Source: Acidobacteria bacterium 5-1
GTDB taxonomy: Bacteria; Acidobacteriota; Blastocatellia; Pyrinomonadales; Pyrinomonadaceae
Reading direction: 5' to 3'
Assembly (NCBI GenBank): GCA_002050455.1
Contig: MWZA01000151.1
Location: 1 to 33,710 of the forward strand
Length of the DNA: 33,710 nucleotides
Part shown: piece by piece, positions 6,511 to 25,358 of the stretch
How positions within the stretch are numbered: position 1 is the stretch's first letter
Layout of the letters: every line of letters begins with the position of its first letter
The notes under the pieces: generated by a model
The model's database searches: none
The model's input: the letters and a program-made list of their open reading frames with translations, nothing else
Told to the model about the DNA's origin: nothing
Made by a program: the position numbers and the translations under genes

Positions 6511-6630
6511 ATTCAAACAGGATGGACAGGATTTACAGGATTATTTGAATTTGTAAAAGCAAAATCGAATTTTTAATCAGTATATTATTTAGTGAATTTA
6601 TCCTGTTTATCCTGTCCATCCTGTTTGAAT
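6511..6630. repeat. Nonamer (ACAGGATNN) inverted repeat before murD
   Basis: The left arm 6511-6541 and right arm 6600-6630 are 31-bp inverted copies with two mismatches, separated by 58 nt of AT-rich sequence. Each arm is about three copies of ACAGGATGG/ACAGGATTT or its complement. The right arm lies inside the longest reading frame of murD. Confidence 0.88.
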
Positions 6631-8495: not shown

Positions 8496-9683
8496 ATGAC
8501 TAAAAAACTTCGCATTGATTGGTTTTTATTTGTGATTGCCGCCAGCCTCGCGCTGTTCGGCGTAATAATGGTTTATAGCGCGTCGGCGATGATTGCGCTT
8601 AAGGAAACGCAAGGCGAAAGTCAATTTACTTATTTTTATAAACAGTTTAGCTTTACGCTGGCGGGTTTGGCAGTGATGTATCTGTCGAGCAAGATTGATT
8701 ATCGTTGGTATCAAAAAAGTTGGGTCGTCTATGGACTTTTAGCTTTAACCGTCGTGCTTTTATTTAGTGTTTTTAATTTTCCTCCCATCAACGGCGCACG
8801 GCGTTGGATTCGGTATTCGGGTTATTCGTTTCAGCCTTCGGAAGTGGCAAAAATCGCTCTGCCCGTTTTTCTCGCTTTTTTCTTGACGAAAAACGAGGAA
8901 ACAATTGGCGAATTAAAGGAAACGGTACTGCCTTGTGCGGCTGTTTTTGCATTTCTTTGCGCGTTGATTTTGGTTGAGCCTGATCTGGGAACGGTCATTA
9001 TTCTTTCGATAGTTTTTACGGTTGTTTATTTTGCGGCTGGCGCGCGGATTCTGCACATCGGTTCGGTTATTGCCGGTTGTTTTTTGATTGGAGCAATTGC
9101 GCTGATTTCCTCGCCTTATCGCCGAGGACGCATTTTTGCTTTTTTAAATCCTTGGGAAAACGCTGATGATGCCGCGTATCAGGTTGTGCAGGGTCTCTAT
9201 GCGATTGGTTCGGGCGGAATTTTCGGCGAAGGTTTTGCCAAAGGTCAGCAGAAACTTTTTTATTTGCCGTATCCATATTCGGATTTTATTTTCGCCGTCG
9301 TCGGTGAAGAATTGGGTTTAATCGGCACGTTAGCAGTTGTCGCAGCTTTCGGTTTAATGTTATGGCGCGGCGCGCGCGCGGCGCTTCTCGCGCCCGACAG
9401 GTTTGGGAAACTGCTCGGAATGGGCATTATTACGGGAATTATTGTGCAGGCACTTTTTAATATCAGCGTTGTGGTTTCAATTTTGCCCGCCAAGGGCATT
9501 CCGCTTCCTTTTATTTCCTACGGCGGTTCTTCGGTTGTCGTTACGCTGTTTGCCGTCGGAATTTTACTGAATTTGTCGCAACACGCAGGGATTGCTTCAT
9601 TTGAAAAAGCAGAAGAAAAAGAAATACCGACACGCCGGAAAAAGAGGAAAAGTTTGCAGGAAGTTACAGAAAGTTACAGATAG
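8496..9683 (+). CDS. ftsW: Septal peptidoglycan glycosyltransferase FtsW (SEDS family)
   Basis: Polytopic SEDS protein (395 aa) that polymerises lipid II at the septum with FtsI. About ten hydrophobic segments are present. SEDS motifs include VYSASAM near residue 27, NGARRWI, FQPSEVAK, LVEPDLGT, and the C-terminal PAKGIPLPFISYGGSS. The position between murD and murG is the standard one for FtsW rather than RodA. The cytoplasmic tail is basic (TRRKKRKS). The last residues (QEVTESYR) and the TAG stop are encoded by the left arm of a tandem repeat, so the native C-terminus has probably been replaced. Confidence 0.96.
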   Translation: MTKKLRIDWFLFVIAASLALFGVIMVYSASAMIALKETQGESQFTYFYKQFSFTLAGLAVMYLSSKIDYRWYQKSWVVYGLLALTVVLLFSVFNFPPINGARRWIRYSGYSFQPSEVAKIALPVFLAFFLTKNEETIGELKETVLPCAAVFAFLCALILVEPDLGTVIILSIVFTVVYFAAGARILHIGSVIAGCFLIGAIALISSPYRRGRIFAFLNPWENADDAAYQVVQGLYAIGSGGIFGEGFAKGQQKLFYLPYPYSDFIFAVVGEELGLIGTLAVVAAFGLMLWRGARAALLAPDRFGKLLGMGIITGIIVQALFNISVVVSILPAKGIPLPFISYGGSSVVVTLFAVGILLNLSQHAGIASFEKAEEKEIPTRRKKRKSLQEVTESYR

Positions 9684-9737
9684 TTACAGGACAAAAAACT
9701 CTGCAACTCTGCAACTCTGCAACTCTGTAACTTTCTG
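9657..9737. repeat. Octamer/decamer repeat hairpin between ftsW and murG
   Basis: Left arm 9657-9690: three units of AAGTTACAGA/TAGTTACAGG, which include the ftsW stop. Right arm 9698-9737: units of ACTCTGCA/ACTCTGTA followed by ACTTTCTG. A 14-bp perfect inverted match joins 9667-9680 and 9724-9737. The right arm ends 6 nt before the murG ATG at 9744. Confidence 0.88.
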
Positions 9738-12246: not shown

Positions 12247-12254
12247 AAAAATTA

Positions 12255-12329
12255 AAACAAGATGGACAGGATTCACAGGATAAATTTTTCTTAAGTTAAA
12301 AATCCTATCTATCCTGATTCATCCTGTTT
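12255..12329. repeat. Nonamer (ACAGGATNN) inverted repeat before ftsQ
   Basis: The left arm 12255-12281 (GATGGACAGGATTCACAGGAT region) and right arm 12302-12329 (ATCCTATCTATCCTGATTCA region) are imperfect inverted copies with about a 20-nt loop. It is a second, more degraded copy of the element before murD. Confidence 0.8.
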
Positions 12330-18687: not shown

Positions 18688-18694
18688 TTGCTTT

Positions 18695-18790
18695 ATCAGT
18701 TGTCAGTTGTCGGTTGTCAGAAATAAACTAACTATTAACTAATTATCTTTCTAATTACTGACAACCGACAACTGACAACCGACAACTGAT
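18695..18790. repeat. Heptamer (ACAACTG/ACAACCG) repeat hairpin before valS
   Basis: Left arm 18695-18720 (TCAGTTG/TCGGTTG units) pairs with right arm 18758-18790 (ACAACCG/ACAACTG units). The right arm is exactly one heptamer longer. The loop is 37 nt of AT-rich sequence. The right arm ends 1 nt before the valS ATG at 18792. Confidence 0.92.
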
Positions 18791-18791
18791 T

Positions 18792-21665
18792 ATGGAAAAA
18801 GCATACAATCCAACCGAAGCCGAAAGCACACATTACAAACGATGGGAAGAACGCGGCTATTTCGCGCCTGAAATTAACGAAAATCCAAACGCCGAAGCGT
18901 TTTCAATCGTCATTCCACCGCCGAATGTAACGGGCAGTCTGCATATGGGACACGCGCTCCAACATACTTTGATGGACGTTTTGACGCGCCGGAAACGAAT
19001 GCAGGGTTACAGAACTTTATTTCTGGTCGGTGTTGACCACGCAGGAATTTCGACACAATTGATGGTTACGCGCCAATTGAAAAAAGACGAACATAAAACG
19101 CCGCAGGACATCGGGCGCGAGACGTTCACGGAAAGAGTCTGGGCGTGGAAAGAAAAATATGGCGGCACAATTACAAACCAAATCCGCCGCGAAGGTCTGT
19201 CGGTTGATTGGTCGCGTGAACGCTTTACAATGGAAGAAAGTTTATCAATCGCCGTGCGAAATGTTTTTGTGCGACTTTATGAAGAAGGCTGGATTTATCG
19301 CGGCACGCGCATCGTTAATTGGTGTCCGCGCGATAAAACCGTGCTTTCAGATTTGGAAGTCAAAGAGGAAACCAGAAAAGACGGCAAACTTTATTATCTA
19401 AAATATCCGATAAAAGATTCGAATAAAAAAATTACGGTAGCGACGACGCGCCCGGAAACAATGCTCGGCGATACGGCGGTTGCCGTCAATGCGGACGATG
19501 AAAGATATAAAGATTTAATCGGCAAAACTATCGAACTGCCTCTGACAGACCGCGAAATTCCGATAATTGCAGATGAATATGTTGACGCGGAATTCGGCAC
19601 CGGCGCGGTGAAAATTACGCCCGCACACGACCCAAACGATTACGAAGTTGGGATGCGTCATAATCTCGAAAAACTTGTTGTGATGAACGATGACGCGACA
19701 ATGAACGCTAACGCAGGCGCGGATTTTGAAGGTTTAGACCGTTACGAAGCGCGTGAAAAAGTCGTCGAAAAATTTGAAGAATTGGGATTGCTTGAAAGGA
19801 TTGACGATTACGAAGTTGTTTTGCCGCATTGCGAGCGTTGCAGAACGGTTGTCGAACCGCTTTTGTCTGAGCAGTGGTTTGTCAACATGTCGGAAATGCG
19901 CGATATGGCTTTGGATTTAATGCAAAAAGAACACGCGCCGCATTTTTATCCAAACGTGCCGCACGAAAAAGTTTATACAACGTGGCTGGAGAATTTGAAA
20001 GACTGGACAATTTCGCGCCAACTTTGGTGGGGACATCAGATTCCGGCGTGGTATGACAAAGCGGGAAATGTTTATGTCGCAAGGACAAAGGAAGAAGCCA
20101 TCAAAAAAGCTGGAACAGACAAATTAGCGCAAGACTCCGATGTTTTAGACACTTGGTTTTCGTCCGCGCTGTGGGCATTTTCAACGCTCGGCTGGACGGG
20201 AGAAGAAGTCCAAAGTCCAAAGTCCAAAGTCCAAAGTCAGGAAACCGAACAACTGACAACCGACAACCGACAACCGACAACCGATTTAGAAACATTTTAT
20301 CCAACCGACGTTCTTGTAACCGGACGCGACATCATTTTCCTCTGGGTTTCGAGAATGGTAATGACGGGTTTGAAATTTTTGGGCGAAAAACCTTTCAAAG
20401 ACGTTATAATTCACGGCACGGTTTTGGACAAAAACGGACAGCGAATGTCAAAAACAAAAAACAACGGCATTGACCCTTTGGATGTTTTCGACAAATACGG
20501 CGTTGATGCAACACGGATGACTTTGGCAGGTTCGTCAACCGGCGCAGATTTCGCTTGGCGCGATGAAAAGGTCGAATCGTTCCGCAATTTCGCCAACAAA
20601 ATCTGGAACGCGACGCGCTTTTGTCTGATGAACAGCGAAGGCGCACAGGTTGATTACACATTCTTAAATCCGAAGGCGGAAGCACGCGAGATTATAAAAA
20701 CTCTAAAAGATGAATTGCGCGAATTTGACGAGGAAGACGAAGAGTTTTTGGATAAAGTAATTCCCGAATTTGCCGCCGACAATCCAAAGGAAAATCTTTC
20801 GATTGCCGACAGATGGATAATTTCGCGCCTTAACAAAACCGCTTTGAATGTGAACAAAGCACTCGAAAATTATCAATTTCACGAAGCCGTTCAGCTTCTT
20901 TACCACTTTTTCTGGGACGATTTTTGCGATTGGTATATTGAACTCGTCAAAGACGAAATCACCTCCGAAGGAGTCAATACAAAGCGCGATACGGCGCGTT
21001 CGCGCATTATCACAATTCTTGAACAAGCCTTGCGCCTGCTTCACCCGTTTATGCCTTTTCTGACGGAAGAACTCTGGCACAAACTACCGGAAGTTTCCCA
21101 CGCTTTGCACAATTGCGCTTACAAAAACGCCGCAGCGACAATTATGCTGACCGATTATCCGCAAGGCGACGCTTCGATGATTGACGAAAAAGCTGAATCA
21201 GAGATGCAAGCCGTTATCGAACTGATTTCAAAGGTTCGCAACATCCGCGCCGAAATGAATATCAAACCGAGCGACAAACCGGCAATTTATGTGGCGGCAA
21301 ATCAAGATTTACAAAAGATTTTCCGCGAAAACAAAGCGCAAATCTTAAAACTCGCCCGCGCTGACGAACTAAAAATCAGCGAAAGTTTAGACGCTCCGAA
21401 AGCCTCGGCACGCGGCGTTTTGAGCGGAAATGTTGAAATTGCCATCCCGCTTGAAGGTTTAATTGATTTTGAAAAGGAAAGCGAACGCCTCGAAAATCAA
21501 TTAACTAAACTAAACACCGAAGGCGAAAGACTGACGAGACAACTTGCCAATAAAAATTTTATCGAAAAAGCACCTGTCGAAAAGGTTAATGAATTACGTA
21601 ATAGAGTTGCGGAAATCCAGCAGCAAACCGCCGCCTTACGGCAAAATCTGACGGCTTTGAAATAA
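18792..21665 (+). CDS. valS: Valine--tRNA ligase ValS with a repeat-encoded insertion
   Basis: Class I aminoacyl-tRNA synthetase that charges tRNA-Val; 957 aa. The HIGH motif is HMGH (residues 51-54) after PPPNVTGSL. The CP1 editing domain spans about 200-350 (TTRPETMLGDTAVAV, GTGAVKITPAHDPND). The KMSKS motif is RMSKT (551-555). The anticodon-binding domain and a C-terminal tRNA-binding coiled coil (about 890-957) complete the protein. Residues 472-498 (VQSPKSK... TTDNRQPTTD) do not fit the family. They are read from a 78-nt tandem repeat placed between GWTGEE and the conserved FYPTDVLVTG, yet the frame stays open throughout. No Shine-Dalgarno precedes the ATG. Confidence 0.97.
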   Translation: MEKAYNPTEAESTHYKRWEERGYFAPEINENPNAEAFSIVIPPPNVTGSLHMGHALQHTLMDVLTRRKRMQGYRTLFLVGVDHAGISTQLMVTRQLKKDEHKTPQDIGRETFTERVWAWKEKYGGTITNQIRREGLSVDWSRERFTMEESLSIAVRNVFVRLYEEGWIYRGTRIVNWCPRDKTVLSDLEVKEETRKDGKLYYLKYPIKDSNKKITVATTRPETMLGDTAVAVNADDERYKDLIGKTIELPLTDREIPIIADEYVDAEFGTGAVKITPAHDPNDYEVGMRHNLEKLVVMNDDATMNANAGADFEGLDRYEAREKVVEKFEELGLLERIDDYEVVLPHCERCRTVVEPLLSEQWFVNMSEMRDMALDLMQKEHAPHFYPNVPHEKVYTTWLENLKDWTISRQLWWGHQIPAWYDKAGNVYVARTKEEAIKKAGTDKLAQDSDVLDTWFSSALWAFSTLGWTGEEVQSPKSKVQSQETEQLTTDNRQPTTDLETFYPTDVLVTGRDIIFLWVSRMVMTGLKFLGEKPFKDVIIHGTVLDKNGQRMSKTKNNGIDPLDVFDKYGVDATRMTLAGSSTGADFAWRDEKVESFRNFANKIWNATRFCLMNSEGAQVDYTFLNPKAEAREIIKTLKDELREFDEEDEEFLDKVIPEFAADNPKENLSIADRWIISRLNKTALNVNKALENYQFHEAVQLLYHFFWDDFCDWYIELVKDEITSEGVNTKRDTARSRIITILEQALRLLHPFMPFLTEELWHKLPEVSHALHNCAYKNAAATIMLTDYPQGDASMIDEKAESEMQAVIELISKVRNIRAEMNIKPSDKPAIYVAANQDLQKIFRENKAQILKLARADELKISESLDAPKASARGVLSGNVEIAIPLEGLIDFEKESERLENQLTKLNTEGERLTRQLANKNFIEKAPVEKVNELRNRVAEIQQQTAALRQNLTALK
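20207..20284. repeat. Composite heptamer repeat inside valS
   Basis: 20207-20240 is about 4.5 copies of AGTCCAA. 20251-20284 is about five copies of ACAACTG/ACAACCG. A 10-nt spacer joins them. The total is 78 nt, exactly 26 codons. The second half has the same unit as the hairpin before valS at 18758-18790. Because 7 is not a multiple of 3, the units are read in rotating frames, giving a seven-residue peptide period (VQSPKSK, TTDNRQP) without stops. Confidence 0.93.
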
Positions 21666-25264: not shown

Positions 25265-25270
25265 AAATTA

Positions 25271-25349
25271 GTGGTAAGTGGTAAATGGTAAGTGGTGAGT
25301 GAAAAACTTAAGATTTAATCCTAGCCATTTACCATTTACCACTTACCAT
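25271..25349. repeat. Heptamer (GGTAAGT) repeat hairpin after nadC
   Basis: Left arm 25271-25295 (GGTAAGT/GGTAAAT units) and right arm 25325-25349 are inverted copies matching at 23 of 25 positions, with a 29-nt loop. The left arm starts 6 nt after the nadC stop. The right arm ends 9 nt before the next ATG at 25359. Confidence 0.92.
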
Positions 25350-25358
25350 TAAAAAAAT

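What the first reader, a model, noticed from the sequence alone, without database searches (positions are those of the whole stretch)
20207..20284. In-frame tandem repeat insertion in the catalytic core of valS
A 78-nt composite repeat (AGTCCAA units, then ACAACTG/ACAACCG units) lies between the conserved segments STLGW and FYPTDVLVTG of ValRS. It adds about 26 residues (VQSPKSK..., TTDNRQP...) with no stop and no frame change. The second unit is the same as in the hairpin that precedes valS. This shows that such repeats can jump or be copied into an essential gene and be tolerated, and it gives the element a length of 78 nt, a multiple of 3. Unlike the others it is not an inverted pair but two different families fused.
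Basis: seen in the sequence. Interest (0 to 1): 0.85.

Follow-up and report, generated by a model that had tools for sequence, protein, structure and literature searches.

The report
Heptamer repeats colonising core-enzyme loops
In a lineage of Acidobacteriota, short DNA made of 7-letter repeats has been inserted, in frame, into a floppy surface loop of the essential enzyme valyl-tRNA synthetase; many other core enzymes of the same genus carry similar inserts, so this is one case of a genus-wide spread of repeats through protein loops.

Summary
In valS (18792-21665) an AGTCCAA array (20206-20239) and an ACAACYG array (20249-20284) interrupt a loop that is 10-15 residues long in 93 of 96 ValRS compared. 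The net gain is 21 residues (63 nt), not 26. The gene looks intact, and AlphaFold2 gives residues 473-495 as the only segment below pLDDT 50. The sister species G007 has an empty site. Two other Pyrinomonadaceae carry unrelated repeats in the same loop; the tree needs three changes.

It is not an isolated jump. Period-7 arrays sit in frame in MutS2, RecG, Mfd, TilS, MetH, TruB, DnaX, FeoB and others. Congeners fill the same loops with different heptamers or leave them empty. The "fused" pair recurs as a ~78-nt composite, same order and strand, in mutS2, feoB, an aldehyde dehydrogenase gene, recG and a congener. In ORFs, close array pairs have different units (11 of 12); outside, most are inverted (15 of 19). 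Of arrays open on both strands, 26 of 29 read in the hydrophilic direction.

Best reading: dispersed heptanucleotide repeats, partly copied as composites, filtered by frame, stops and solubility; near neutral for ValRS. How they move is unknown. Closest kinds: STRR/TAACTGA repeats and Rickettsia palindromic elements.

The parts
18792..21665 (+). valS, valyl-tRNA synthetase, 957 aa, with the in-frame insert
   Evidence: NCBIfam valine--tRNA ligase over residues 2-952; only full-length ValRS found in the genome
20207..20285 (+). composite of two heptamer arrays, peptide VQSPKSKVQSQ-ETE-QLTTDNRQPTTD; same build as composites in mutS2, feoB, aldehyde dehydrogenase and recG
20206..20239 (+). array 1, unit AGTCCAA, about 4.7 copies; net +30 nt against the empty site if the ETE codons are native
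20240..20248 (+). linker GGAAACCGA; holds GAAACCGA as in the TETE codons of empty sites, so possibly native
   Evidence: sequence
20249..20284 (+). array 2, unit ACAACCG (first copy ACAACTG), about 5 copies; net +33 nt
20208..20276 (+). residues 473-495, the only segment of the AlphaFold2 model below pLDDT 50
18693..18724 (+). left arm of the inverted heptamer pair before valS
   Evidence: I4
18754..18791 (+). right arm, ACAACTG/ACAACCG units, ending at the valS start codon
13190..13266 (.). another inverted heptamer pair (ATTCCAG / CTGGAAT) of the same general class
25268..25352 (.). another inverted heptamer pair (AGTGGTA / TACCACT)

Best explanation
The feature is a lineage-specific, in-frame insertion of dispersed heptanucleotide repeats into a tolerant, disordered surface loop of ValRS, one of many such insertions in core genes of this Pyrinomonadaceae genus. 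Shown: the insert, the empty sister site, an intact gene, recurrence at the same loop, genus-wide turnover in other enzymes, composites of the same build in unrelated genes, and biases in orientation and pairing. Inferred: arrays arise and lengthen by 7-nt slippage; some array pairs are copied as ~78-nt composites, by template switching in replication or repair or by another copying step; only those insertions survive that keep the frame, lack stops, encode hydrophilic peptides and fall where the fold does not care. The insert adds a floppy extension and probably has no function for ValRS. I give about 0.6 to one composite event in valS and 0.4 to two neighbouring insertions that kept the native ETE codons.
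For: Arrays and frame. Empty site in G007 and other congeners; loop 10-15 residues in 93 of 96 ValRS, 27, 34 and 40 in the three repeat alleles. Three separate changes on the ValRS tree. Codon-position divergence 0.095/0.052/0.266 to G007. Disorder confined to the insert. The same loops of MutS2, RecG, TruB and a prenyl synthase filled by different heptamer peptides in each congener. Composites align over the whole valS insert: feoB 78% over 81 nt, mutS2 84% over 62 nt, alignment, independent full-length match in G006. Same codon phase at the end of array 1 in four composites. 26 of 29 arrays in the hydrophilic direction (p 1.5e-5). Pairs: different units inside ORFs, inverted outside (Fisher p 1.7e-4). 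Units linked by single changes, 50 pairs against 21.7 expected.
Against: No mover, conserved flank or target duplication was found. The valS linker resembles the native codons, not the linkers of the other composites, which speaks against one composite event. Contigs were partly chosen because they hold these units, so genome-wide counts are rough. Neutrality is not measured.
Confidence: 0.77

Rival explanations
1. Local birth only: each array grew in place by 7-nt slippage from a chance duplication in a loop under weak constraint, and nothing is copied between loci. Similar units arise because some heptamers slip more readily and because only a few peptides are tolerated.
For: No conserved flanks; arrays of many different units (39 in 98 arrays); in G007 the aldehyde dehydrogenase site keeps array 1 but has another array 2; valS junctions look like the native sequence (GAAGT, GAAACCGA).
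Against: The same ordered composite with shared linker letters in unrelated genes and in another species; AGTCCAA arrays at some 25 places in this genome but in only 7 of 297 genomes of the phylum; unit network above shuffles.
Confidence: 0.3
2. The insert is useful: it changes ValRS (binding, stability, localisation) or serves as a switch through copy-number change.
For: It is retained in an essential gene, and the same loop was filled three times.
Against: Each occupant has a different peptide, the sister lacks it, and the same happens in many unrelated enzymes. A one-unit change (7 nt) would shift the frame of an essential gene. The segment is predicted disordered.
Confidence: 0.08
3. Assembly or binning artefact: the repeat was joined wrongly into valS.
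For: The genome is a 223-contig draft at 79% completeness, and repeats can mislead assemblers.
Against: Arrays of 34 and 36 nt are shorter than ordinary reads; the frame is kept at both junctions; independent draft genomes show the same kind of in-frame insert in the same loops.
Confidence: 0.04
4. A REP/MITE-type element moved by a transposase such as RAYT.
For: Outside genes most close array pairs are inverted repeats, and Y1 transposases occur in most relatives.
Against: Own genome: only a broken pair of matches; G020 and G015 have 13 and 9 matches but no arrays in 40 kb sampled each; G001 has arrays and none. No conserved ends or target duplication.
Confidence: 0.05

Closest known systems
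Heptanucleotide repeats of cyanobacteria, Beggiatoaceae and Bacteroidetes (STRR; TAACTGA direct repeats, MacGregor 2015, PMC4679880)
   Same: Unit of 7 nt, many dispersed arrays, patchy distribution, arrays just before start codons, some copies inside ORFs; the exact TAACTGA unit is also in this genome (L149 11765-11789), and its reverse peptide LSVISYQ appears in the MutS2 loop of G008.
   Different: There, coding copies were mostly at protein ends or in hypothetical proteins. Here they are inside many conserved enzymes, as composites of two units, with turnover between sister species. The paper does not mention Acidobacteria.
Rickettsia palindromic elements (RPE; Ogata et al. 2000, described in PMC2229807)
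   Same: Small dispersed DNA found both between genes and in frame inside conserved protein genes, tolerated by the enzyme.
   Different: RPEs are 105-146 bp palindromes that fold as long stem-loops; here the coding form is ~78 nt, not palindromic, and built of two direct heptamer arrays whose units change.
GGGNATC heptamer repeats of Xanthomonas and Nostoc (Rehm et al. 2015, PMC4692102)
   Same: Heptamer arrays, preference for about four units, paired convergent arrays in Xanthomonas, a minority intragenic.
   Different: Those are G-rich and form G-quadruplexes; the units here are A-rich without G-tracts.
REP elements with RAYT transposases, and MITEs
   Same: Intergenic copies are mostly inverted pairs that can fold as hairpins.
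   Different: No conserved ends, no target duplication and no relation to RAYT counts.

Membership tests
Heptanucleotide simple sequence repeats (STRR/LSSR) | Tandem arrays of 7-nt units above chance, dispersed in the genome | tested here: met
   31 period-7 arrays against 0 in shuffles of 259 kb; AGTCCAA at about 25 places, 0 in the reversed control
Heptanucleotide simple sequence repeats (STRR/LSSR) | Mainly intergenic, few in coding regions | tested here: not met
   40 of 98 arrays lie inside ORFs of 200 aa or more in a partly selected sample; in blindly chosen contigs 2 of 7
Rickettsia palindromic element (RPE) | In-frame presence inside conserved protein genes, with empty sites in relatives | tested here: met
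Rickettsia palindromic element (RPE) | Palindromic element of 105-146 bp that folds as a long stem-loop, also when inside a gene | tested here: not met
   Coding composites are direct pairs of different units, 77-79 nt
Rickettsia palindromic element (RPE) | Sequence homology to RPE families | not tested
   No RPE sequences were fetched
REP/RAYT or MITE | Conserved terminal inverted repeats and target-site duplication | tested here: not met
   Flanks of 21 AGTCCAA arrays show no shared ends
REP/RAYT or MITE | Cognate Y1 transposase in genomes rich in the element | tested here: not met
   No clear relation between PF01797 counts and arrays
Phase-variable SSR | Copy-number variants within a population that switch a contingency gene | not testable with these tools
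   No reads or strains of the same species at hand; the host gene is essential

The most novel reading that the evidence does not exclude
The ~78-nt composite is a protein-coding mobile element: it is copied as a unit, in one reading frame, between unrelated genes and between species, and its two heptamer arrays can later be exchanged separately; one copying or synthesis activity working in a 7-nt register drives both the intergenic hairpins and the coding composites of this lineage.
Probability: 0.25. Interest if true: 0.85.

Novelty: new variant of a known kind. Interest (0 to 1): 0.64.

Why it matters
If right, tandem repeats of a kind known mostly from intergenic DNA are being turned into protein sequence in many essential enzymes at once in a bacterial genus that is not a reduced-genome parasite like Rickettsia, with fast replacement between sister species. 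That is a natural experiment on which enzyme loops tolerate insertions, a route to new disordered protein segments, and a testable case for how heptamer repeats spread. It also warns that indels in ValRS, MutS2, RecG or TruB of this family are repeat turnover and not phylogenetic signal.

Tried and rejected
RAYT/Y1 transposase as the driver: no relation between its counts and the arrays. A larger mobile unit with shared flanks: flanks of 21 AGTCCAA arrays differ. Target-site duplication at valS: nothing beyond a possible GAA GAA. Carriage by viruses: 22 and 14 stretches among 2.9 million viral contigs hold the two units, no sign of a vector. A length divisible by 3 as a rule for the arrays: coding arrays run from 19 to 61 nt; only the net change must be divisible. 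One shared insertion in the three occupied ValRS: disfavoured by the tree and by the different units. Literature searches for such repeats in Acidobacteriota found nothing on the point.

Full report
What was checked. The window is contig C128 of a 3.2 Mb, 223-contig genome (79% complete); its nearest named relatives are Acidobacteria, Pyrinomonadaceae and Chloracidobacterium MAGs. valS spans 18792-21665 and is the only full-length copy found. Tandem Repeats Finder gives 4.7 copies of AAGTCCA at 20206-20238 and 5.9 copies of AACCGAC-type units at 20243-20284. The frame is open throughout.

Empty and occupied sites. In the genus the loop reads GW(N/T/D)GE-(V/T)TETE-DLKxF, 13 residues; here it has 34, a net gain of 21 residues or 63 nt. 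Over 96 ValRS with a readable loop, 93 have 10, 11, 13 or 15 residues; only this one (34), G005 (40) and a Chloracidobacterium-labelled MAG, JANYIL010000106 (27), are long, and all three carry different repeats. A PMSF tree of 25 ValRS puts the empty G007 as sister (99/95), and its well supported branches force three changes. One gain with several losses is formally possible but would also need the repeats to be replaced.

Is the enzyme intact? NCBIfam names it valine--tRNA ligase over residues 2-952. Codon-position divergence to G007 is 0.095, 0.052 and 0.266, as under purifying selection; HMGH and RMSKT motifs are present. The AlphaFold2 model (mean pLDDT 85.6) has exactly one segment of three or more residues below 50, residues 473-495, between helices 461-466 and 497-502. 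Its best PDB match is Thermus ValRS 1gax, and the phmmer alignment to 1gax breaks at the same place, residue 471 to 495 of the query at residue 472 of 1gax.

Not an isolated case. In 259 kb of the genome, period 7 is the dominant tandem period: 31 arrays at a threshold where shuffles give none. Arrays are in frame inside MutS2 (two), Mfd, RecG, TilS, MetH, PDH-E2, TruB, DnaX, a phytoene/squalene-type synthase, an asparaginase-family protein, a histidine kinase, FeoB, a ComEC-like protein and others. Aligning MutS2, RecG, TruB and the synthase with relatives shows the same loops filled in each congener by different heptamer peptides (VQSPKSK, TTDNRQ, RITNYEL, NPKSKIQ, QLSVISY, KGQRTKD) or empty (MutS2 loop 1 of G004 and G006), while more distant genera have short or unrelated linkers. 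In sampled stretches the arrays are patchy: present in the genus and in G016, G010 and G034, absent in G020, G015, G028, G029, G030 and G045, and rare in Firmicutes control loci.

The composite. BLASTN shows that this arrangement is itself repeated: the valS insert aligns with feoB over 81 nt (78%) and with mutS2 over 62 nt (84%); an aldehyde dehydrogenase gene and recG join through mutS2. The alignment shows about four units of AGTCCAA type (ATTCCAA in recG), a linker of ~10-15 nt, then about four ACAAC-type units, always in this order and on the coding strand. A sequence model built from these five finds further full-length forms in the genome and in congeners; the best non-seed one, in G006 (48 bits), reads VQSPKSRVQSRQTSAANDEQRTADE inside another gene. 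The four own composites of AGTCCAA type end array 1 in the same codon phase, while three single arrays end in three different phases. Against one event in valS: its linker GGAAACCGA contains the native GAAACCGA of empty sites, and each array alone keeps the frame (+30 and +33 nt). I leave this at about 0.6 to 0.4. In G007 the aldehyde dehydrogenase site keeps the AGTCCAA array but has another second array, so arrays also turn over separately.

Signs of selection. In ORFs of 200 aa or more, 40 arrays were found; 29 have units open on both strands, and 26 of these read in the more hydrophilic direction (p 1.5e-5; 14 of 16 without the AAAGTCC family, p 0.004). Array pairs within 80 nt are inverted in 15 of 19 cases outside such ORFs but in 1 of 12 inside (Fisher p 1.7e-4). 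So hairpins and hydrophobic or stop-bearing directions seem to be filtered out of proteins. Arrays in one gene are not fully independent, and the contig sample was partly chosen for these units.

How it may move. Units form a network of single changes beyond shuffled units (50 pairs against 21.7, maximum 35 of 200), the same units recur at many loci, and AGTCCAA arrays are patchy in the phylum (7 of 297 genomes, one of them in another family). This favours spread with mutation over purely local birth. No transposase, flank or duplication points to a known mover. Template switching between repeats with 7-nt slippage is the mechanism I consider most likely; it is inferred.

Comparison with the literature. 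Heptamer repeats are known from cyanobacteria, Beggiatoaceae, Bacteroidetes and Xanthomonas (PMC4679880, PMC4692102). Coding copies of TAACTGA repeats were reported mainly at protein ends or in hypothetical proteins. RPEs in Rickettsia are the known case of in-frame elements in conserved genes (PMC2229807). I found no report for Acidobacteriota in the library searched, which is not proof of absence.

Limits. Most genomes used are draft assemblies; raw reads were not available; coding status in the sample rests on open frames, codon use or family hits; the model's seeds match it by construction; AlphaFold2 used 30 sequences; neutrality and mobility are inferences.

Noticed in passing
18693-18791, and the 300 nt before valS in L002, L003, L004, L008, L009, L013: In most congeners the stretch just before the valS start codon carries heptamer arrays, often as an inverted pair, with a different unit in each species and no clear Shine-Dalgarno: the position is kept while the unit is replaced.
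   Followed up: partly
6511-6546, 6595-6630 and 12251-12286: A 9-nt family (ACAGGATTT / TTTATCCTG) forms an inverted pair and a distant copy, a different unit length in the same sort of place.
   Followed up: no
9697-9732: Octamer array AACTCTGC x4.5 ends 12 nt before the start of a murG-like ORF (9744); a 10-nt array (CAGAAAGTTA) lies just before it at 9657-9689.
   Followed up: no
L189 13835-13919 and L370 (G007): FeoB carries a second composite at its N-terminus that is shared with the sister species G007 at the orthologous site, so some composites are older than the species split.
   Followed up: partly
G220 (another family of the phylum): This genome has 61 AGTCCAA array matches while the sampled genome of the same genus (G066) has none, which suggests sudden local gain or transfer.
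   Followed up: no
L149 11765-11789: An exact TAACTGA-type array, the unit described from Beggiatoaceae and cyanobacteria, is present in this Acidobacteriota genome.
   Followed up: no
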